Shown here one piece after another: positions 32,965 to 51,820 of a DNA stretch of 64,000 nucleotides. This DNA comes from Synechococcus sp. PCC 7336 (lineage in GTDB: Bacteria > Cyanobacteriota > Cyanobacteriia > Thermostichales > PCC-7336), in NCBI RefSeq assembly GCF_000332275.1, contig NZ_CM001776.1, forward strand, positions 3,470,008-3,534,007. The letters are read 5' to 3'. The notes below the pieces were generated by a model. The model did not search any database and was not told the DNA's origin. It saw only the letters and a list, made by a program, of their open reading frames with translations. Both the position numbers and the translations under genes were made by a program. The number at the start of each line of letters is the position of its first letter. Position 1 is the first letter of the stretch.

Positions 32965-34843
32965 TGCAAAATAACGCCAACTTCGGCACCCTAATCACGC
33001 CCAACTTCGGGGTCTTGTCCGCTTTTGGTGATGCAGAGAAGGTATAGGAGAATACCAGGTGCAAACCCTCACTCTGCCAAGCCCGTGGAACTTTTACAGC
33101 ATCTCCTGCCCAGCCAAACGGATGTGAGCTTGAACAGTTGGAGTATCGATCCGGCCAACCAACAGCTCGTTGTTAACCTCTGCTCGACTCAAACGGTGGC
33201 CTGTTGCCCGCTGTGTCATCGCTCCACCGATCGCATCCATAGCCACTATGAGAGAACGTTGAGGGATCTGCCATTAGTTCAATTCACGCTGACGATATTG
33301 CTCCAAGTCTGTAAGTTCTTCTGCCTCAACGAGCGTTGCCCTCGGCGTATCTTTACGGAGCGTCTGCCCGAGGTTGTCGCGCCTTGGGCCAGACGCACGA
33401 CTCGCTACACGGCTCAACTGGAAGCGATGGGCTTAGCCCTCGGTGGTTCGGCAGCAGCCCGCTTGAGCCATCAGCTCGGATACGGATACAGCCCGCACAC
33501 CATCTTGCGAGCCATCTCCAAATTGCCCCTACCAGTCATGGCCACGCCAAAGATATGGGGGGGGGGATTAATTTCGCCGTTTCGCACGGGTCATCATTAC
33601 GGAACGATCCTGGGTCGAACTGGGAGACCACCCAACCGATCGCACTAACTCCCCGACCGGGCGGCTGGGACCTTAGCAGCCTGGTTGAAAGAGCATCCTG
33701 GGCGGTGAAGATTTTCTCGAGAGATCGCTCCAAAGCCTACAGGCGAGGCATGAGCGATGGAGCACCCGATGCCATCCAGGTAGCCGATCGCTTTCATCTG
33801 TTGCAGAATCTCGAAGAGGCTTTAGAGAAAGTCTTTAAGGGACAAACCCAGTCGCTCGAACAGGTTGAGCAGCAACAGATTCAAGCCCAACAGCCAACCG
33901 AAGCACCGACCCCCGAAGCTGCTCCGGATAGATATCGAACCCAAAGGGAAGTCAATCGGGCCATACGACTGGAGAAGTGGGAACAAACCCATGCTCTACG
34001 CAAGCAAGGCTATGCCATTAAAGACATTGCCCATCACCTCGGCATTGGCGAGCGAACGGTGTATACCTACCTGGCCGCGTCAACGTTTCCGGAATGGCAA
34101 TATCCTGTGGGGCGGCGGAGAAACCCCAGTTGTTTGGATCCATACAAGGCTTACCTGTCAGAGCAATGGCAGCAAGGGCGCCAACAAACTAAACAGTTGT
34201 TTGGCGAGATCCAACAGCAAGGGTACCCGGGCAGCTATATGACCGTCGCCCGTTACACTCGGCAGTTGCGTTGCTCTCTGCCCTCCATCAAGCCCAGCCG
34301 AGAATCCCTCAATGACTTACCGGGTCGGGGACCAGCGCCATCACCCGCCACACCAGTGTCAGAGCCTTTGAGTGCCAAGCGGGCGGCTTGGCTGCTGTTG
34401 ACACGGCCTGAAAACCTTACGCCTGAGGAGAAAACCCTGCTGGAAAAACTGGGCCAGCAGCCAAAGTTATCGGGGGCGATCGCTCTGGCTCAGGGGTTCA
34501 TCAAACTGGTGCGCGAGCGACTGCCTGGGGAATTCGACGATTGGCTGGAGACAGCTGTGAGCAGCTCAATCAAGGCATTACGGAGTTTTGCCAAGGGTCT
34601 TCAAGAAGATTACGATGCGGTGAAAGCAGCTCTCACACTCGAGGTGAGCAATGGGCCAGTGGAGGGTCAAAACAACCGACTAAAAATGCTGAAACGGCAG
34701 ATGTTTGGAAGGGCTGGGCTCGAGCTATTGGCCAAGCGCCTCATCCTAATCAGTTGATTCTTATACGAAATAAGCGCCTCATTTAGGACAGATTTAACGA
34801 TCACCAAAAGCGGACAAGACCCCGAAGTTGGCGTTATTTTGCA
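32965..34843 (+). mobile_element. ISL3-family element (type A), copy 1; left endpoint of the inversion
   Basis: The element begins TGCAAAATAACGCCAACTTC with an internal 24-bp duplication of the end (to 33,010). It finishes at TTTTGCA 34,843 without that duplication. The two ends do not match each other, but each matches the partner end of the other copy at 49,951-51,820. CTTGG follows at 34,844-34,848. Its transposase is frameshifted. Confidence 0.83.
33031..34757 (+). pseudogene. ISL3-family transposase, disrupted by clustered indels
   Basis: The protein matches the intact copy at 50,061-51,779 from MQRRYRRIPGANPHSAKPVE to RLILIS. Between 33,555 and 33,720 at least five one- or two-base differences destroy the frame, including a run of ten G where the other copy has ggggg followed by tgg. 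Sequence on both sides is practically identical. The clustering could be real decay or poor base calls at this spot in a repeat. Confidence 0.82.
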
Positions 34844-38032: not shown

Positions 38033-38075
38033 CAGGACTATCTTTGAATGAAATAACCCTGCCTCAGGGCCTATG

Positions 38076-38178
38076 GTTAGGTTTGATGGCCAACTTGCGG
38101 TAGCTAGACCAATTAGGGCGATCGCAGGTTAGCACTCCCAATTTTGCCCACAAAATTTAAGGACAGTAGAAACCTAAC
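38076..38178. repeat. GTTAGGT...ACCTAAC repeat, copy 1
   Basis: A 103-bp unit with GTTAGGTTTGATGGCCAACT at one end and ACCTAAC at the other, containing GGGCGATCGCAGG and TTTAAGGACA. Related copies are at 39,260-39,363 and, cut by IS21, at 42,743-42,806. This copy lacks the extra hairpin that precedes the others. Confidence 0.7.
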
Positions 38179-39176: not shown

Positions 39177-39363
39177 GGCCAACGGTCTTGAGGTTGGCGG
39201 TGCTAGATCAACTCTCAACGAAGAGTAATAATTTTGCTAAGCATCCGCTGCGGTGAAGGGTTAGGTTTGATGGCTCACTTGCAATAGCCAAACCAATTAA
39301 GGCGATCGCAGGCTAGCACCTCCCAATTTCACCCACAAAACTTAAGGACAACAGAGACCTAAC
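39177..39363. repeat. Hairpin plus GTTAGGT repeat, copy 2
   Basis: This copy starts with a hairpin GGCCAAC-loop-GTTGGCGG (39,177-39,200), then about 60 conserved bases, then the GTTAGGT...ACCTAAC unit (39,260-39,363). The hairpin stems differ from the 42.66-kb copy by paired changes that keep the pairing. It lies just 3' of the gene at 39,390-40,478. Confidence 0.65.
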
Positions 39364-40644: not shown

Positions 40645-41763
40645 CTAATCTGGAAACGTCACCTGGATGTAGTCTGCAAACCCCCTATTGCTCCTCCTGC
40701 CCGTTGTTGAAATTCTGGATTCATCCTCCATCTTCTTTAACACCTCCTTGTAGTTCCTGCTGATATACGGGGTGTCAACGCAGTGTTGCTCGTAGATCTC
40801 TTTCATCGTTAACGTGCGGCCTCTGAACGAACTGAGGAGAAGTTGCTCCAGTTCATCCAATGGCCGGTTGAGCTCGAATAGCAACTTCTGTTCCGCAGAA
40901 GACGGTGGAACAAATTCAAACGATGGAACACCTTGATTCTCTTTCGATGATTCCTTCGCCATGACCTCTTTCATCACTTCATAACCCTTAAAAGCCTTGG
41001 ATACGAAGATCAGGTGGTGCGTAGTACGCTTGCCGCTTTGATTCTTGAAACAAAACGGTAGGACGTATCGGTGCCCGAAGGATTTGAGGACCTGTGCCAA
41101 ACTTTCGACTATGGTTGTTTCTCTTTCCTGTGATGACATGCCATTCAACCTGGCTGACAGAGCTTCAGCTTCATCGCCGAATAATGCTTCCATGTGTTGT
41201 TTGACTAGTGGATTAGACAGCCCTGCATTTATCCGAGAGTAGTTGAAGAAAAAAATGCAGTCACAGCCCCAATCTTTCAGGAATGCATCGACAAGTCGCA
41301 GCGAAAGCCCTTTGTATCCCCAAGGATCAATAAATGCAAACAAAGGGATTGTTATAATCTCTTCGAATTGCTTGGCAATATCCTCTCCCACTTCTTCGTT
41401 CCAGACGATTGGAGAGTTTTTTAATCGGGAAATATTCTCAAGTTCGCCAATTGCGGATAGGAGTGAGCTTGAGTGATCTTCGTTCTTATCGTTGAGGATT
41501 GTTACCAGTCTCTCGCTGATCTCCGGATCATCTAGTGCTCGGTTTAGAATTCGAAGTGGAGTAGATATTGACCCATCTTTGTATCTACCTGGCCCAGCAA
41601 ACAGATCTACATATCCCAGCTTCTGGGTACGTCTTGGAAAACGTTTCTGAGTTGCGATAATAATCTTCGCCCAAGCCACAAAGTACTTCTCGACGATGGT
41701 CGCCTTTACGACTGACTGCTCTTGGGATTCGTCGAAAAACTTATCGCTGCTACTTGGGGACAT
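40645..41763 (-). CDS. tcmP: Three-Cys-motif partner protein TcmP
   Basis: I chose ATG 41,763 (MSPSSSDKFFDESQEQSVVK), which has the strong SD AAGGACAAGGA; the frame also extends to 41,808 into the upstream gene. The 372-residue protein shows the TcmP pattern: ATIVEKYFVAWAKIIIATQ, YVDLFAGPGRYKDGS and FIDPWGYKGLSLRLVD, then FFFNYSRIN. The family is a Rossmann-like, methyltransferase-related fold of unknown reaction and is encoded next to DUF5131/three-Cys proteins. That partner overlaps or adjoins it here. Confidence 0.88.
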   Translation of the reverse strand: MSPSSSDKFFDESQEQSVVKATIVEKYFVAWAKIIIATQKRFPRRTQKLGYVDLFAGPGRYKDGSISTPLRILNRALDDPEISERLVTILNDKNEDHSSSLLSAIGELENISRLKNSPIVWNEEVGEDIAKQFEEIITIPLFAFIDPWGYKGLSLRLVDAFLKDWGCDCIFFFNYSRINAGLSNPLVKQHMEALFGDEAEALSARLNGMSSQERETTIVESLAQVLKSFGHRYVLPFCFKNQSGKRTTHHLIFVSKAFKGYEVMKEVMAKESSKENQGVPSFEFVPPSSAEQKLLFELNRPLDELEQLLLSSFRGRTLTMKEIYEQHCVDTPYISRNYKEVLKKMEDESRISTTGRRSNRGFADYIQVTFPD

Positions 41764-41783
41764 TCCTTGTCCTTTTCTTTTTG

Positions 41784-42593
41784 CTAAGTTGCCGGAAGCT
41801 GATTCCACATTAATTCATCAAGCAACCGACCAGTGTTTTTCTTGCCAACTTTGACGAATTTCTCGCCATACCAAACTTCCACTTTCTTTGTGACAAACTG
41901 GTCTCCCATCTCTTGTGCGGGAAACCAGTCACCCCACTGCTTGAAGTGAAAAGGTACATTGTGCTGGACGCAAACGTCCCGGATATGTCTAAACCAATCA
42001 GGGGAGGTGGGCCTTGCCTTTGAGCCCGTTTCGCCACCAGTAATTACCCAAGAAAGACTGCTAATCCATCGCGAAAGATCTAAATCTTCAAGCAATGGTT
42101 CGCAAGAAAGAAACTTCACCCTAGCATTGCTCTCTACGAGTTTGGGTATTCGTTTCAGGGCTGCGGCTTGGTCCTCAACTGTTGTCCCTAACCACACGTT
42201 TGTCGGCCAGTTGTCCCCCCAAGGAGTCAAGCGCCCAGCGAGATGCGGTCGTTTTGTGAGCAAGAGCCAGTCCAAGTTTGGAGTGTCCTCTATGAGCTGC
42301 CAGAGGCGCCTCCTATACTTGTTGAGGTCTTGGCGCCATTCAAATACGTCAGCCATAGAAGCGCAAAACACTCGCTTACGGCCAGACTCACCGGCCTCCT
42401 TATCCCAGACTAGCGGTTGCATCCAATAGTTGTCACTGAGAGACCTTCTTTCAGCTCTGTGGCCCCATACTGAATGGCCAGTTCGTTTTGCCCAGGCTTC
42501 GGCATAGCAGTTGTCGCAAGCAGGGGAAACCTTGGTACATCCCCACCAAGGATTGAAAGTATGATCAGTCCACTCGATCTTGGAATCTCGCAT
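41784..42593 (-). CDS. DUF5131 (phage Gp37/Gp68) three-Cys-motif protein
   Basis: I use ATG 42,593 (MRDSKIEWTDHTFNPWWGCT). The 269-residue protein carries the cysteine motif CTKVSPACDNCYAE, which suggests a radical-SAM-like Fe-S site. It also has FCASMADVFEWR, LLLTKRPHL and VWLGTTVEDQ, SCEPLLEDL, WVITGGETGSKARP. It precedes tcmP by 20 bases on the same strand, forming the known two-gene pair. The substrate is not known. Confidence 0.9.
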   Translation of the reverse strand: MRDSKIEWTDHTFNPWWGCTKVSPACDNCYAEAWAKRTGHSVWGHRAERRSLSDNYWMQPLVWDKEAGESGRKRVFCASMADVFEWRQDLNKYRRRLWQLIEDTPNLDWLLLTKRPHLAGRLTPWGDNWPTNVWLGTTVEDQAAALKRIPKLVESNARVKFLSCEPLLEDLDLSRWISSLSWVITGGETGSKARPTSPDWFRHIRDVCVQHNVPFHFKQWGDWFPAQEMGDQFVTKKVEVWYGEKFVKVGKKNTGRLLDELMWNQLPAT

Positions 42594-42656
42594 GGGCCGA
42601 GTATACACCTGTATTTATAACCAGTATAGCCCTTGTGTACTGGGCAGATGTATCGG

Positions 42657-42806
42657 TCCGCCTAACGTCCTTGAGGTTAGCGGTGCTAGATAACCTCTCA
42701 ACGAAGAGCAATAGTTTTGCCAAGCATCCGCTGCGGCGAATGGTTAGGTTTGATGGCCAACTTACAATAGCTAAACCCATTAGGGCGATCGCAGGCTAGC
42801 ACTATC
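42657..42806. repeat. Hairpin plus GTTAGGT repeat, copy 3, cut by IS21
   Basis: The copy starts with hairpin CCGCCTAAC-loop-GTTAGCGG (42,657-42,682) and runs through the GTTAGGT unit to the IS21 boundary at 42,807. The right part of the unit (to ACCTAAC) is lost. Together with copy 2 it brackets the DUF5131, tcmP and coiled-coil genes. Confidence 0.65.
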
Positions 42807-42894
42807 TGGCGACAATGATCTTGGCCGCCAAGTGTCAATCATCTTGGCCGGTGAAAGCGGAAACTAAGCAGCAACCCATATCCCCATCTGCACA

Positions 42895-44496
42895 GTGCCC
42901 GGTCAACGAATCAATCAACGACAGGTCAAGATCTATATGAATGCAAGAGAGGGAGGTTGCGAGCAGGAAGCTGCGGCAGCCAAAGCTGGAATATCAACCC
43001 GAAGCAGTCGACGAATTGAGAGGGGGGAGCATCAACCGGGAAAGGCGCGTCAGCGCTGGCGCAGTCGCCCAGATCCGCTAGAGGCTGTGTGGGAAAGTGA
43101 GCTGGAACCGTTGCTGCGTCGGGAACCGAAGCTCAAACCGATGACCCTGTTGCTCTATCTACAGAGGAAGCACCCTGGCGAGTATTCCCGTTCCATCTTG
43201 AGAACGCTGCAAAGGCGAGTGCAGCAATGGCGAGCCCAGCATGGCCCAGCCAAAGAAGTGATGTTTCCCCAGGAGCATCGTCCAGGCGAGCAAGGTCTGT
43301 CGGATTACACGCAACTGAAACAGGTGAAGGTCACCATCGGGGGAGAAGCCTTTGCCCACCTGCTCTATCACTACCGTCTGGCCTACAGCGGTTGGCAATA
43401 TGTGGAGATTGTGGAAGGGGGGGAAAGTTTCATCAGTCTCTCCGAATGCCTGCAAAATGCCCTGCATGAATGTGGCGGAGTGCCCAAAGCACATCGCACC
43501 GATAGCCTCAGTGCTGCCTATCGCAACCTGGGAGGACGAGCGGAAAAAGACTTGAGTTTCAGCTACCAAAAGCTGTGCGAACACTACCGCATGCGGCCCA
43601 GTCGGAATAACCGGGGTCAGGGTCACGAGAACGGTTCCATCGAATCCCCGCACGGTCACTTCAAACAGCGATTACGCCAAGCCCTGCTGCTGCGGGGAAG
43701 CACGGACTTCGACTCGAAAGCCGACTATCAGGCTTGTATTGCCGAAGTGGTGGCCTCTCTCAATCAGAGCTGCGAGGCAGAGTTCGGCATCGAACGAGAA
43801 TTTCTGGGAGCTCTGCCGACTCATCGTCACCCGGATTGCGAAGTGCTCTCGGTTAAGGTGACTCGCAACAGTACCATCAGCGTGTGCTGTATCCTCTACA
43901 CCGTCCCCTCTCGATTGATTGGCCAGCGACTGACGATCCACTTACACCACGACCGCTTGGTGGGGTTTGTGGGTCTGCAACCAGTGGTGGAGTTGAAGCG
44001 ATTGCACGTGCCCAAAGAGGCTCCCAGCCGCCGGGGTCGCCAGCTCGATTACCGGCATGTGATTGACAGTTTGAGGAGCAAGCCGAGAGCCCTGCTCAAC
44101 TGTCAATGGCGCGAGCAGCTCCTTCCCAGCGAGGACTACCGCCGTTTGTGGGGCCAGTTTCTCGAGCAGTTCGGTTCCGATACTGCTTGCCGGTTGATGG
44201 TGGCATCCCTCTACATCGCCGCCAAACAAGACAAGCAACAGGCGGTGCTGGAGTATCTCGAATCTCAGTTTGCGGCCCAAAGCTTGACCCTATCTGGCTT
44301 GCAGCAACAGTTCGGGCAGACTCAATCCTCCCCCCATCCGCTGGAGGTACATCAACATTCTTTATTCGACTACGACCAACTGATTTGCCATGACTCTATC
44401 CAATCCCCGCATCCAGCAGACCCTACCGCTATTGCTCAAATCCCTGCGCCTGCCCCACATGCTCAAACAGTGGAGCTCCCTGGAGCAACAGGCTAG
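42895..44496 (+). CDS. istA: IS21 transposase IstA
   Basis: The 533-residue protein has an N-terminal HTH (RINQRQVKIYMNAREGGCEQ, AGISTRSSRRIERG) and the rve integrase core with LSDYTQLKQVKVTIGGEAFA, RTDSLSAAYRNLGG and GHENGSIESPHGHFKQRLRQ, the DDE positions. The GTG start follows the left end. Its 3' end overlaps istB by about 100 bases, the normal IS21 arrangement. Confidence 0.92.
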   Translation: MPGQRINQRQVKIYMNAREGGCEQEAAAAKAGISTRSSRRIERGEHQPGKARQRWRSRPDPLEAVWESELEPLLRREPKLKPMTLLLYLQRKHPGEYSRSILRTLQRRVQQWRAQHGPAKEVMFPQEHRPGEQGLSDYTQLKQVKVTIGGEAFAHLLYHYRLAYSGWQYVEIVEGGESFISLSECLQNALHECGGVPKAHRTDSLSAAYRNLGGRAEKDLSFSYQKLCEHYRMRPSRNNRGQGHENGSIESPHGHFKQRLRQALLLRGSTDFDSKADYQACIAEVVASLNQSCEAEFGIEREFLGALPTHRHPDCEVLSVKVTRNSTISVCCILYTVPSRLIGQRLTIHLHHDRLVGFVGLQPVVELKRLHVPKEAPSRRGRQLDYRHVIDSLRSKPRALLNCQWREQLLPSEDYRRLWGQFLEQFGSDTACRLMVASLYIAAKQDKQQAVLEYLESQFAAQSLTLSGLQQQFGQTQSSPHPLEVHQHSLFDYDQLICHDSIQSPHPADPTAIAQIPAPAPHAQTVELPGATG

Positions 44497-45178
44497 CGAG
44501 CAGGGATGGTCCTACGGTCAATTTCTCGCCGCTCTGTGCGAACAGGAGCAGGCTCAGCGCTACCACAACCGGGTACAGCGCTATCTCAAGCAGGCTCAGT
44601 TGCCTCCCGGCAAGTCGCTGACCAATTTCAACTTTGACCACTGCCCCCATCTCAATCAGACTCAACTGATGCAGTTAGCTAATGACCGGGGTTGGTTGGA
44701 GCGAGGAGAAAATTTGCTCTTGTTCGGACCCAGTGGAGTTGGGAAAACTCATGTCATTACGGCTGTATCCCGCTCCCTGATTGAGTTAGGCGCTCGGGTG
44801 AAGTTCGTCAGTGCCACCACTCTGGTGCAGCAGTTACAGCAGGCTAAGCTTGAGCTTTCACTACCGACTCAGCTGCTGGCTCTCGATCAGTTCGAGTTGT
44901 TGGTGCTTGACGATATTGGTTACGTCAAACGCTCGGAGGCTGAAACGTCGGTGCTCTTCGAGCTGATCTCCCATCGCTACGAACGGCGCAGTTTGGCCAT
45001 CACTTCCAATCATCCCTTCAGTGCTTGGGATTCTATTTTTGCCGACACCATCATGACGGTTGCGGCGGTCGATCGCCTCGTGCATCACGCCACCATCATC
45101 GAGATTCAAACTGAAAGTTTCCGGCGACAGAAGGCCGTTGAGTCTCACTCTGTTGGCGATCGCAACCCGGCAGGATAG
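44390..45178 (+). CDS. istB: IS21 helper ATPase IstB
   Basis: The 262-residue AAA+ protein has Walker A (LLLFGPSGVGKTH), Walker B (LLVLDDIGYVKR) and sensor region SLAITSNHPFSAWDSIF. It helps IstA choose targets. The last 42 codons are repeated three times, degenerately, in the DNA directly downstream. Confidence 0.93.
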   Translation: MTLSNPRIQQTLPLLLKSLRLPHMLKQWSSLEQQASEQGWSYGQFLAALCEQEQAQRYHNRVQRYLKQAQLPPGKSLTNFNFDHCPHLNQTQLMQLANDRGWLERGENLLLFGPSGVGKTHVITAVSRSLIELGARVKFVSATTLVQQLQQAKLELSLPTQLLALDQFELLVLDDIGYVKRSEAETSVLFELISHRYERRSLAITSNHPFSAWDSIFADTIMTVAAVDRLVHHATIIEIQTESFRRQKAVESHSVGDRNPAG

Positions 45179-45480
45179 TTGACGCCACTGCTTTCACCGA
45201 TCGCTGTTTGGATAGCGCGACAAACATCGCGATTCCAACTGAGGTTCCCAGCCATAGCAGGCTGTCGAGACTCGCATTCTTAGCGGATCGCAACCCGGCA
45301 GGATGCTTGACGCCACTGCTTTCACCGATCGCTGTTTGGATAGCGCGACAAACACTGCGATTCCAACTGAGAGTTCCCAGCCACAGCAGGCCGTCGAGGT
45401 TTGCATTTTTGGCGATCGCAACTCGACAGGATGGCTGACGCCACTGCTCTCACCGAGCACTTCTTGGCTGATGCGACCAT
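45179..45480 (+). repeat. Degenerate tandem copies of the istB 3' end
   Basis: Three units of about 126 bp each contain a gattccaactgag block, a cagcaggc(c/t)gtcgag block and a gatcgcaacccggcaggat block. These align in order with the last 126 bp of istB (attcaaactgaaag, cagaaggccgttgag, gatcgcaacccggcaggat). One frame still reads VDATAFTDRCLDSATNTAIP. They lie inside the IS, ahead of its right end. Confidence 0.65.
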
Positions 45481-45487
45481 CATCCGC

Positions 45488-47610
45488 TTACTGCGCGTTA
45501 CAGTAACCGGTCAGAATGATTGACGCCGACCGGCCAGGATGGTTGACATTTAATATGTAGGTATAGCTGGAGTCGAAGTCACGGATGCCAATCAGTTGAC
45601 TGGCGGCATCGTAGCTATAGTCGATCTGGTCAACTGTGCTACCTACACTGTCTGAGAAGCGTTCTTGTGAGAGGCGATCGAGTAAATCGTAGCTGTAATC
45701 GGTTTGACGACCGTTGCGATCGATGAGGCTAGTTAAGTTACCGACTGCGTTGTAGCTAAAAGTGCGGCTGTCGCCCAGAGGATTGGTTTCGCGCACCAAT
45801 AGGTCGCGGGCGTCATACTCATACGTGGTGGTGTTGCCGGAGGCGTCAGTGAAGGATGCGAGGGTACCGACAGCGGTATAGCTGGAGGTGGTGGTAAACC
45901 CGAGTGGATCGATAGTAGCGATCTCTCGATTGAGCTCGTCGTAAACAAAGCGGGTGGTATTGCCCAAAGCATCGGCTTGCGAGGTCAAATTGCTGACGGC
46001 GTCGTAGCTGAACAGTGTCGAGTTACCCAAGGCATCGGTGATGCGAGTTTGTCGGTTGAGCTCGTCATAACCGAAGCGAGTAGTGCGCCCCAACTCATCA
46101 GTAAAGGCAGTCTGATTGCCAACAGCATCGTAGATGAAGTTGATGCTATTCCCCAAAGCATTGGTGGTTTGGGTAAGGCGGTTGAGGACGTCATACTCAG
46201 AAGTCGTCACTCGCCCTAAGGCATCCTCGATAGCGTTAAGGTTGCCGACAGCGTCGTAGTTAAACAGGGTGGAGTTGCCGAGGGCATCGGTGATGCGAAT
46301 TTGTTGATTGAGCGCGTCGTAACCGAAACTAGTGATGCGCCCTAACTCGTCTTTGGATGCAGTCAGATTTCCGACAGCGTCATAGGTAAAGTTGGTGCTA
46401 TCCCCCAAAGCGTTAGTAGTTTGTACCAGACGGTTGAGCTCGTCATACTCCGAAGTCGTGACGCGCCCTAATTCATCCTGGAAAGCCGTCAGATTTCCTG
46501 CCGCATCGTAGGTGAAATTGGTGCTGTCACCCAAGGTATTGGTGGTTTGCACCAGACGGTTTAGCTCGTCATACTCCGAAGTCGTGACGCGCCCTAATTC
46601 ATCCTGGAAAGCCGTCAGATTTCCTGCCGCATCGTAGGTGAAATTGGTGCTGTCACCCAAAGCATTGGTGGTTTGTACCAACCGATTGAACTCGTCATAC
46701 TCCGAAGTCGTAACACGTCCTAATTCATCTTGGAAGACAGTCAGATTCCCTGCCGCATCGTAGGTGAAATTGGTGCTGTCACCCAAAGCGTTAGTAGTTT
46801 GAACTAGACGGTTGAGTTTGTCATACTCCGAAGTCGTAACCCGGCCTGATTCATCCTGGAAAGCAATCAGATTGCTGACGGCATCGTAGGTGAAATTGGT
46901 GCTGTCACCCAAAGCATTGGTGGTTTGTACCAGACGATTGAGCTCGTCATACTCCGAAGTTGTGATACGCCCTAGCTCGTCTTGGAATGCAGTTAAATTC
47001 CCCGCCGCATCGTAGATGAAGTTGGTGCTGTCATCCAAGGCATTGGTGGTTTGCACCAAACGATTGAGCTCGTCATAGTTTGAGGTTGTAACGCGCCCTA
47101 ACTCATCTTGGGAGGCAGTCAAATTACCGACAGAATCATAGGTAAAGGTGACGCTGTCGCCTAAAGCATTAGTAGTCTGTACCAATCGATTGAGAACGTC
47201 ATACTCCGAAGTCGTAACCCGCCCTAATTCGTCTTGGAATGCAATCAGATTACCGACAGCATCGTAAGTATTTCTGAAACTATCACCTAAAATATTAGTG
47301 GTTTGAGTCAAGCGATTGAGATTATCGAATGCGAACGTCGTCACCCGACCGAGCTCGTCCTCCCGCGCGATAACGTTACCAACAGCGTCGTAGGTCAAAG
47401 TGACACGATCGCCTACAGCATTGGTGGTTTCCACCAAACGGTTGAGCCCGTCATAGCTGAGGGTGCTAACACGGCCTAATGCATCGATAGTCTCGATGAG
47501 ATTGCCTTCGCCGTCGTAACTCAGACGGTTAGTTTCTCCCAATGCATCCGTCACTTCGGCCAAACGATTCAGCTCGTCGTAGACCGAAGTCGTAATACGC
47601 CCTAGCTCAT
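45488..47610 (-). pseudogene. Second-type YD core with 126-bp tandem repeats, no tip
   Basis: The frame holds about 15 YD repeats of a very regular 42-residue unit (DELGRVTTSEYDELNRLVQT, then TNALGDSTNFTYDAAGNL). The DNA units of 126 bp are almost identical between 46,380 and 47,250. It ends at YSYDAASQLIGIRDFDSSYT and is cut by IS21 at 45,549, so core end and tip are gone. At its 5' end it is fused to the tail of another module. It is a different core type from the other modules and the giant gene. Confidence 0.8.
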
Positions 47611-48942
47611 CTTCAATTGCGATCTGGTTGCATTACCATTGGAAAACTCAGTCAGTGTAACTTGAGATACATTTGCACCTGTCCCCAAAAGAACAGCTCC
47701 CAAGGCGCTTGTTGCAACAACAGGTGCCAGTGCACCAGCAGCAGCTCCTACTCCAGCGGCGATTACCACATCGCCAATATCTATACTTCCTGTAGAAATA
47801 AGTTGGCCTGCAACCGAGCCAGCAGCCCCAGCCAGCAGCCCTATTCCGCCAGTAACCACAAATAATGGAACGAATTCACCAGTGGGATCGGTGAAGGTTG
47901 TAGGGCTATTAAAAACATATCTATAAAGGTTAGAATCACCTGCACTGAAGCCTAATTGATCTTGACTTACAAACTGTCCACTGGACGAGTCATAATAACG
48001 TCTTCTATTGTAGTAGAACCCAGTTTCTACGTTGAACTCGCGGCCTGTGAAACTAAATCGAAACTCAATACTGGGATTAGTTTGTCCAGTAATATTCCCA
48101 AAGCTATCGTAGAGAATGTGATTGACAATACTACCCCCTGCATCGACCAGATCTCGCACGGTCCCTAAATTATCGGTCAGAGTAAAGAGTGCTCTGCCCT
48201 GAGCATCTTCCTGAGCCAGTATTTGGTCTGTTACCGGACCGTGCAAATAGCGAGCAGTCAGATCGCCCTCGCCATCAAATACAAGAGAAATGTGCTCTTT
48301 GTCATACACAAAACGCTCCGTTTGCGCGGCTAAAGCTCCATCTCCATCCAGATCGACAGTTCTGAGAATGCGACGGCCGAAGACATCGTAGTCATATTCC
48401 GCCGAGAGGATGGTGTTGCCATCGCTATCGCGGGTAACAACTGTTCTCAATTGATTGCGATGGTCGAACTCGTATTCGGTGACCTCTCCAGTCGCTCTGT
48501 CCGTCTGACGAATGCGGTTGCCCTCATTGTCGTAGTCGTAGAGGAATTGCTCGTCTTCGAGCAATCGATTGTCAGGGCCTGAGCGAGAGCCGTCATTGGT
48601 GCGATTGCCATTGGCGTCATAGGTGTAAACCTCATCAGTCTGGAAGCTATGCTCTGCCGAGATGAGTTGACTGCGCTCGTCATAGCTGAAGCTGCTGACC
48701 CCATCGATTGAAACTAACTCAGTAATGCGATTGGCCGCATCGTACTGATAGCGATACTCGGCGATCGCACCTCCATCATTAAGCCTTGCTGTATCTGATT
48801 CCCGAGGTGTAATGTCTCTCCTCCAGCTAAATTTCGCCGCTCGCTCTCTCCACCGACTCAAGAAAAGTCTTAGTAGTGTTCGAGTTTTGGGCTGCTTCTC
48901 TGAAGTCTTCCAGGATTCGTTCGTATTCTTCCGGTTTCCCAA
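47602..48942 (-). pseudogene. YD core fragment with truncated tip linker
   Basis: Genuine YD sequence starts near 48,780 (NDGGAIAEYRYQYDAANRIT) and is nearly identical to the 18.5- and 30.4-kb modules. The first 55 residues come from other DNA. The core end is FTGREFNVETGFYYNRRRYY, SQDQLGFSAGDSNLYRYVFN, FTDPTGE. It is followed by a hydrophobic Gly/Ala/Val linker (VVTGGIGLLAGAAGSVAGQL). The tip is missing: at about 47,630 the frame is fused to the second-type core. Confidence 0.78.
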
Positions 48943-49950: not shown

Positions 49951-51820
49951 TGCAAAATAACCCCAACTTCGGCACCCTAATCACGCCCAACTTCGGGGTC
50001 TTGTCCGCTTTTGGTGATCGTTAAATCTGTCCTAAATGAGGCGCTTATTTCGTATAAGAATCAACTGATTAGGATGAGGCGCTTGGCCAATAGCTCGAGC
50101 CCAGCCCTTCCAAACATCTGCCGTTTCAGCATTTTTAGTCGGTTGTTTTGACCCTCCACTGGCCCATTGCTCACCTCGAGTGTGAGAGCTGCTTTCACCG
50201 CATCGTAATCTTCTTGAAGACCCTTGGCAAAACTCCGTAATGCCTTGATTGAGCTGCTCACAGCTGTCTCCAGCCAATCGTCGAATTCCCCAGGCAGTCG
50301 CTCGCGCACCAGTTTGATGAACCCCTGAGCCAGAGCGATCGCCCCCGATAACTTTGGCTGCTGGCCCAGTTTTTCCAGCAGGGTTTTCTCCTCAGGCGTA
50401 AGGTTTTCAGGCCGTGTCAACAGCAGCCAAGCCGCCCGCTTGGCACTCAAAGGCTCTGACACTGGTGTGGCGGGTGATGGCGCTGGTCCCCGACCCGGTA
50501 AGTCATTGAGGGATTCTCGGCTGGGCTTGATGGAGGGCAGAGAGCAACGCAACTGCCGAGTGTAACGGGCGACGGTCATATAGCTGCCCGGGTACCCTTG
50601 CTGTTGGATCTCGCCAAACAACTGTTTAGTTTGTTGGCGCCCTTGCTGCCATTGCTCTGACAGGTAAGCCTTGTATGGATCCAAACAACTGGGGTTTCTC
50701 CGCCGCCCCACAGGATATTGCCATTCCGGAAACGTTGACGCGGCCAGGTAGGTATACACCGTTCGCTCGCCAATGCCGAGGTGATGGGCAATGTCTTTAA
50801 TGGCATAGCCTTGCTTGCGTAGAGCATGGGTTTGTTCCCACTTCTCCAGTCGTATGGCCCGATTGACTTCCCTTTGGGTTCGATATCTATCCGGAGCAGC
50901 TTCGGGGGTCGGTGCTTCGGTTGGCTGTTGGGCTTGAATCTGTTGCTGCTCAACCTGTTCGAGCGACTGGGTTTGTCCCTTAAAGACTTTCTCTAAAGCC
51001 TCTTCGAGATTCTGCAACAGATGAAAGCGATCGGCTACCTGGATGGCATCGGGTGCTCCATCGCTCATGCCTCGCCTGTAGGCTTTGGAGCGATCTCTCG
51101 AGAGAATCTTCACGCCAGGATGCTCTTTCAACCAGGCTGCTAAGGTCCCAGCCGCCCGGTCGGGGAGTAGTGCGATCGGTTGGTTGGTCTCCAAGTCGAC
51201 CAAGATCGTTCCGTAATGATGACCCGTGCGAAACGCGAAATCATCCACCCCCAATATCTTTGGCGTGGCCATGACTGGTAGGGGCAATTTGGAGATGGCT
51301 CGCAAGATGGTGTTGCGGCTGTATCCGTATCCGAGCTGATGGCTCAAGCGGGCTGCTGCCGAACCACCGAGGGCTAAGCCCATCGCTTCCAGTTGAGCCG
51401 TGTAGCGAGTCGTGCGTCTGGCCCAAGGCGCGACAACCTCGGGCAGACGCTCCGTAAAGATACGCCGAGGGCAACGCTCGTTGAGGCAGAAGAACTTACA
51501 GACTTGGAGCAATATCGTCAGCGTGAATTGAACCAATGGCAAATCCCTCAACGTTCTCTCATAGTGGCTATGGATGCGATCGGTGGAGCGATGACACAGC
51601 GGGCAACAGGCCACCGTTTGAGTCGAGCAGAGGTTAACAACGAGCTGTTGGTTGGCCGGATCGATACTCCAACTGTTCAAGCTCACATCCGTTTGGCTGG
51701 GCAGGAGATGCTGTAAAAGTTCCACGGGCTTGGCAGAGTGAGGGTTTGCACCTGGTATTCTCCTATACCTTCTCTGCATCACCAAAAGCGGACAAGACCC
51801 CGAAGTCGGATGAATATGCA
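49951..51820 (-). mobile_element. ISL3-family element (type A), copy 2; right endpoint of the inversion
   Basis: The left end (TGCAAAATAACCCCAACTTC) has the 24-bp internal duplication and the right end (reading TGCATATTCATCCGACTTCG inward) does not. CCAAG follows at 51,821-51,825, the complement of the CTTGG beside copy 1. Transposase intact. Orientation is opposite to copy 1. Confidence 0.85.
50061..51779 (-). CDS. ISL3-family transposase, intact
   Basis: I use ATG 51,779 (MQRRYRRIPGANPHSAKPVE), since the upstream codons belong to the terminus. The 572-residue protein has the ISL3 zinc-binding part (CCPLCHRSTDRIHSHYERTL, CLNERCPRRIF), then ILGVDDFAFRTGHHYGTILV, DLETNQPIALLPDRAAGTLA and IQVADRFHLLQNLEEALEKV. 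A helix-turn-helix insertion (GYAIKDIAHHLGIGERTVYT) and the end VEGQNNRLKMLKRQMFGRAG follow. It could mobilise both copies. Confidence 0.92.
   Translation of the reverse strand: MQRRYRRIPGANPHSAKPVELLQHLLPSQTDVSLNSWSIDPANQQLVVNLCSTQTVACCPLCHRSTDRIHSHYERTLRDLPLVQFTLTILLQVCKFFCLNERCPRRIFTERLPEVVAPWARRTTRYTAQLEAMGLALGGSAAARLSHQLGYGYSRNTILRAISKLPLPVMATPKILGVDDFAFRTGHHYGTILVDLETNQPIALLPDRAAGTLAAWLKEHPGVKILSRDRSKAYRRGMSDGAPDAIQVADRFHLLQNLEEALEKVFKGQTQSLEQVEQQQIQAQQPTEAPTPEAAPDRYRTQREVNRAIRLEKWEQTHALRKQGYAIKDIAHHLGIGERTVYTYLAASTFPEWQYPVGRRRNPSCLDPYKAYLSEQWQQGRQQTKQLFGEIQQQGYPGSYMTVARYTRQLRCSLPSIKPSRESLNDLPGRGPAPSPATPVSEPLSAKRAAWLLLTRPENLTPEEKTLLEKLGQQPKLSGAIALAQGFIKLVRERLPGEFDDWLETAVSSSIKALRSFAKGLQEDYDAVKAALTLEVSNGPVEGQNNRLKMLKRQMFGRAGLELLAKRLILIS

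What the first reader, a model, noticed from the sequence alone, without database searches (positions are those of the whole stretch)
45549..47610. Near-perfect 126-bp tandem array in a second-type YD core
The 42-residue units are almost identical at DNA level from about 46,380 to 47,250, unlike the diverged repeats of the other cores. Such an array can expand or contract by slippage and may be collapsed or mis-sized in the assembly. It indicates recent amplification and a second Rhs lineage.
Basis: seen in the sequence. Interest (0 to 1): 0.5.

Follow-up and report, generated by a model that had tools for sequence, protein, structure and literature searches.

The report
Displaced fragment of an Rhs gene
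The repeat array is real but less uniform than described, and it is a silent, recently copied piece of a larger Rhs (YD-repeat) gene found elsewhere in the same genome, cut off at both ends, which is an ordinary kind of Rhs-locus debris with one clear trace of gene conversion.

Summary
The 126-bp array exists: 16 units of 42 residues lie on the minus strand. It is not near-perfect. Neighbouring units are 34-96% identical in DNA; only units 8 and 9 reach 96%. DNA similarity still exceeds 500 synonymous shuffles of the same protein, so some amplification is recent. The feature is not a gene. Window 45556-47631 is a 2,076-bp copy, with nine differences, of the middle of a 2,663-aa Rhs reading frame about 73 kb away in inverted orientation. 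It lacks both ends: on its 5' side it abuts, out of frame, another Rhs fragment that has lost its toxin tip; on its 3' side it ends exactly at an IS21-like element. Seven of the nine differences fall within 42 bp and match paralogues, a gene-conversion tract. A paralogue shows a 378-bp duplication inside its array, so size changes in 126-bp steps do occur. A second core lineage is supported by a tree. Known kind: a displaced Rhs core fragment. Assembly caution is fair: the seven N gaps found all lie in Rhs clusters.

The parts
45556..47631 (-). Displaced internal fragment of an Rhs/YD core: 16 double-YD (42-aa) units, no start, no core end, no tip
   Evidence: 99.57% identical over 2,076 bp (9 differences) to C1:3440538-3442613; RHS_repeat E 2.2e-146, 16 stretches; YD_repeat_2x E 1.7e-103
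46430..47059 (-). Most homogeneous stretch of the array (units 5-9); units 8 and 9 are 96% identical
   Evidence: unit matrix; lag-126 profile against synonymous shuffles
45926..45967 (-). Gene-conversion tract (at least 42 bp, at most 71 bp, 45918-45988): seven synonymous differences from the source gene, all equal to paralogues
   Evidence: 0 of 200,000 random placements put 7 of 9 differences within 42 bp
47602..48942 (-). Neighbouring Rhs fragment of the other core type: core end plus hydrophobic linker, toxin tip missing; its frame runs into the array out of register and stops
   Evidence: Rhs_assc_core E 9.2e-20; frames; junction; tree
42802..45555 (+). IS21-like element (istA 42895-44496, istB 44390-45178) whose right end is the 3' boundary of the array fragment; no target duplication seen
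   Evidence: second copy at C1:2589183-2591936, 100% as printed, sets the ends; IstB_IS21 E 4.9e-66; flanks
42660..42801 (-). attC-like integron repeat interrupted by the IS21-like element
   Evidence: 28 further places in the genome; alignment; chance control

Best explanation
This is a silent, displaced fragment of an Rhs polymorphic-toxin gene. The array arose inside a full-length YD core by unequal recombination or slippage between 126-bp units; each step adds or removes a whole double-YD unit and keeps the frame. A 2,076-bp internal piece of that gene was later copied, in inverted orientation about 73 kb away, into a zone of Rhs remnants. Its 5' edge was joined to another Rhs fragment, with loss of that fragment's toxin tip, and its 3' edge was cut by an IS21-like element, most simply by recombination between IS copies or an IS-adjacent deletion. 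After the copying, one 42-71 bp tract was overwritten from a paralogous core. The fragment most likely has no role as a protein; at most it is recombination substrate. Shown: the copy, its boundaries, the frame break, the conversion pattern, the duplication in a paralogue. Inferred: which copy is the source, the order of events, the IS mechanism, the absence of expression.
For: 2,076-bp match with nine differences to the middle of a 2,663-aa reading frame. The fragment lacks the core end that the source frame has (Rhs_assc_core). The neighbouring frame 47602-48942 enters the array out of register and stops. The 3' boundary coincides with the IS end as defined by a second IS copy. On its other side the IS interrupts an attC-like repeat that continues in the other copies read, so what originally lay across the IS is gone. 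Two other array-bearing frames of the genome (C1:3454862 and C1:501334) also start abruptly in mid-repeat. Conversion: inside 45918-45988 the window equals paralogues L011 and L012 at every site, while flanking sites follow the source gene; the source gene's density of differences from the paralogues looks the same inside and outside the tract, so the window copy is the likelier recipient, and the source gene's own variant has no other match within 3 mismatches in the genome. Unequal exchange: paralogue units 4-5 recur as 7-8 at 100 and 99%, and paralogues hold different unit numbers.
Against: No intact relative of the lost tip was found, so the exact 5' join cannot be placed against an undisturbed sequence. 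No IS copy carrying a reciprocal Rhs flank was seen among the copies read, so the IS step is inference only. Displaced Rhs fragments described in print lie just downstream of their gene as direct repeats; this one is about 73 kb away and inverted. Expression was not tested. The start and N-terminal part of the source frame were not examined, so it is shown to be open, not shown to be functional.
Confidence: 0.83

Rival explanations
1. Assembly artefact: reads of the source gene's array were placed a second time between an Rhs remnant and a repeated IS, and the apparent conversion tract is a chimeric path through paralogous reads.
For: All seven 100-N gaps found in 489,005 fetched bases (overlaps included) lie in two Rhs clusters, four of them just upstream of the window start, and none in ten 20-kb stretches elsewhere. 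Array and IS are both repeats, and the tract shares up to 71 bp with paralogues.
Against: The window has no N. The 5' junction joins the array directly to sequence of the other core type. Two further differences outside the tract, one changing an amino acid, separate the copies. A chimera would need two switch points within 71 bp.
Confidence: 0.1
2. A functional orphan module: the array fragment and the preceding core end are expressed, or are swapped onto a full-length gene to change its shell.
For: Orphan CT/immunity modules of CDI and Rhs loci are functional in enterobacteria (PMC3150448, passages); the conversion tract shows that copies do exchange sequence.
Against: No tip, no core end, out of frame with the preceding ORF, cut by an IS. 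An orphan module is defined by its toxin/immunity pair, which is absent from the fragment.
Confidence: 0.05

Closest known systems
Dissociated rhs core fragments and tips of Enterobacteriaceae (Jackson et al. 2009, PMC2935791; passages read)
   Same: Fragments of core nearly identical to a full gene in the same genome, mostly silent; two E. coli strains there carry a core fragment without any obvious tip, as here.
   Different: Those lie downstream of the gene as direct repeats and carry a tip as a rule; this one is about 73 kb away, inverted, tipless, and ends at an IS.
Orphan rhs-CT / cdiA-CT modules (Poole et al. 2011, PMC3150448; passages read)
   Same: Fragmentary genes without start signals in a toxin locus; some cdiA orphans there are disrupted by IS elements.
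   Different: Orphan modules are defined by a toxin/immunity pair; here only mid-core repeats remain.
YD/RHS repeat shell of Rhs proteins (e.g. PDB 7q97, 8qja, best PDB sequence matches)
   Same: Same repeat family over most of the fragment.
   Different: The fragment holds only part of a shell; its fold was predicted at low confidence (mean pLDDT 55.8, all beta).

Membership tests
Rhs/YD-repeat protein family | Tandem RHS/YD repeats | tested here: met
   RHS_repeat 474.5 bits, 16 stretches; YD_repeat_2x 335.4 bits, 14 stretches
Rhs/YD-repeat protein family | RHS repeat-associated core end (TIGR03696) | tested here: not met
   Absent from the fragment's reading frame; present in the source frame (84.9 bits) and in the neighbouring frame (70.9 bits). 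So it is a piece of a member, not a complete member
Rhs/YD-repeat protein family | Complete gene with start and variable C-terminal tip | tested here: not met
   Both ends missing
Displaced (dissociated) rhs core fragment | Core nearly identical to a full gene of the same genome | tested here: met
   99.57% over 2,076 bp
Displaced (dissociated) rhs core fragment | Downstream of its parent gene, same orientation | tested here: not met
   About 73 kb away and inverted
Displaced (dissociated) rhs core fragment | Carries a C-terminal tip | tested here: not met
   Fragment ends at the IS end inside the repeats; tipless core fragments are described in PMC2935791
IS21 family (flanking element) | istA and istB | tested here: met
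   IstB_IS21 223.1 bits; for istA only Mu-transpos_C_2, 29.4 bits over its cut-off of 27
IS21 family (flanking element) | Target-site duplication | tested here: not met
   Flanks differ on the two sides, consistent with rearrangement after insertion; the other complete copy shows none either

The most novel reading that the evidence does not exclude
Silent, inverted core fragments serve as donors and acceptors of sequence for live Rhs cores, so that the YD shell itself, and not only the toxin tip, changes in whole 42-residue steps through ectopic conversion and unequal exchange; the inverted 2-kb copies could also flip the roughly 73 kb between them.
Probability: 0.12. Interest if true: 0.5.

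Novelty: new member of a known kind. Interest (0 to 1): 0.25.

Why it matters
It turns a vague near-perfect repeat into a chain of events that can be put in order: array growth, copying, IS truncation and gene conversion within one genome. It indicates that YD-core arrays change length in frame-preserving 126-bp steps, which bears on how variable the Rhs shell can be. Otherwise it is ordinary Rhs-locus turnover.

Tried and rejected
A separate second-type gene at 45549-47610: rejected, both ends are missing. A near-perfect array: rejected by the unit matrix. Repeat similarity forced by protein conservation alone: rejected by synonymous shuffles. IS insertion with target duplication: none seen. 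Copy number across strains: no close genome available (own genome only of 39, besides the own genome 4 of 291 with protein matches, 53% identity or less, whose five loci, tested at lags 57-399, peak at 0.78 and have no window at 0.80). One relative from genome contigs, 29% identical in its best segment, was not pursued. Structure prediction gave a low-confidence all-beta model, so no fold search was run. A first tree used four rows in the wrong orientation and was discarded; one search replaces it. Literature: searches; only passages of PMC3150448, PMC2935791 and PMC3482391 were read, the rest as search listings.

Full report
Observation. The minus strand of 45549-47610 does encode a tandem array of 42-residue double-YD units. 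TRF reports period 126 at 46337-47266, 7.4 copies, 82% matches. Reading the frame gives 16 units. The pairwise matrix shows a hump: adjacent identities rise from 53% at the 5' edge to 96% between units 8 and 9 and fall to 34% at the 3' edge. So 'almost identical from 46,380 to 47,250' is too strong. As a control I reshuffled synonymous codons 500 times, keeping protein and codon use: the observed maximum at lag 126 (0.968) and the extent at 0.80 or more (459 positions) exceed every shuffle (at most 0.865 and 184). The DNA similarity is therefore real and partly recent. Six other Rhs reading frames in the window, the neighbouring frame at 47602-48942 included, peak at 0.40-0.60.

What it is. 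The window lies in a single 5,066,637-base record at C1:3470008-3534007. A second copy of the array lies at C1:3440538-3442613 on the other strand, inside a 2,663-aa open frame, C1:3437039-3445027, that also has the Rhs core-end domain. The two copies differ at nine of 2,076 positions. Outside 45556-47631 the similarity stops at once. At 45555/45556 the neighbour is the end of an IS21-like element, defined by a second IS copy elsewhere. At 47631 the neighbour is the linker of a different Rhs fragment (47602-48942) whose frame runs into the array out of register and stops; its own tip is missing. In the tree that neighbouring fragment groups with window cores of the first type (90/93, long branch), whereas the array's source gene and three relatives form a clade at 99/95.

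Conversion. Seven of the nine differences lie within 45926-45967; in 0 of 200,000 random placements did 7 of 9 fall so close. At all seven sites the window equals the three paralogues L010, L011 and L012. Over the maximal tract 45918-45988 it equals L011 and L012 fully, and L010 but for one base, while sites on both sides follow the source gene. Since the source gene differs from the paralogues at about the same density inside the tract as outside, the window copy is the likelier recipient (inference). The source gene's variant has no second match within three mismatches in the genome.

Array size change. The nearest long array, in a 5,099-aa frame at C1:3085000-3100296, has its own hump of similar units, and its units 4 and 5 recur as 7 and 8 at 100 and 99%, a 378-bp duplication. 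Two other array-bearing frames (C1:3454862 and C1:501334) begin abruptly in mid-repeat; the 3' units of the first (units 5-8) are 99-100% identical to those of the 5,099-aa frame. A profile of the 42-aa unit gives 32, 40, 10 and 6 matches in the four frames (source, 5,099-aa, C1:3454862, C1:501334) and 16 in the window fragment.

Assembly. Seven runs of exactly 100 N were found in 489,005 fetched bases (overlaps included), all in two Rhs clusters: four at C1:3463426-3470007, the last ending immediately before the window, and three at C1:1155902-1163267. None lay in ten 20-kb stretches that I took elsewhere (these were not checked for Rhs genes). The window itself has none. The assembly therefore looks like a gapped scaffold that breaks in Rhs clusters; this supports checking by long reads but does not show that the array is mis-sized.

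Relatives. None of 38 other genomes matched the array DNA. Of 291 genomes of the class, four besides the own one had protein matches at the chosen cut-off, with 53% identity or less, and their five loci showed no lag from 57 to 399 with identity of 0.80 or more.

Known kind. Jackson et al. (PMC2935791, passages) describe silent, truncated core fragments in Rhs loci, including fragments without a tip; Poole et al. (PMC3150448, passages) describe orphan modules, some cdiA ones disrupted by IS elements. The present fragment fits the first description except for place and orientation. I found no paper on YD-array size change in the searches, which cover only open-licence papers.

Noticed in passing
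window 38073-38136, 39181-39319, 42660-42801: attC-like integron repeats; one search lists 28 places besides 42660-42801, many clustered near integron-integrase matches (TIGR02249, 380.9 bits at C1:927338-928087, over its cut-off; partial matches at C1:2574022-2575093 and C1:4251138-4251437). The window seems to hold outlying cassettes.
   Followed up: partly
window 40645-42608: A DUF5131 gene and a gene with a GMT-like wHTH domain side by side between attC-like repeats; both match PADLOC candidate defence models (PDC-M30A, PDC-M30B/M41B): perhaps a defence cassette of the integron.
   Followed up: partly
window 45103-45456: A 128-bp unit repeated 2.8 times inside the right end of the IS21-like element, overlapping the end of istB.
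   Followed up: no
window 49987-51809 and 32993-34831: Near-identical element copies (99.8 and 98.7% to C1:497627-499456), with an ISL3-type transposase in the first.
   Followed up: no
C1:3463426-3470007 and C1:1155902-1163267 (outside the window; L010, L058, L059): Seven 100-N gaps, all in Rhs clusters.
   Followed up: yes
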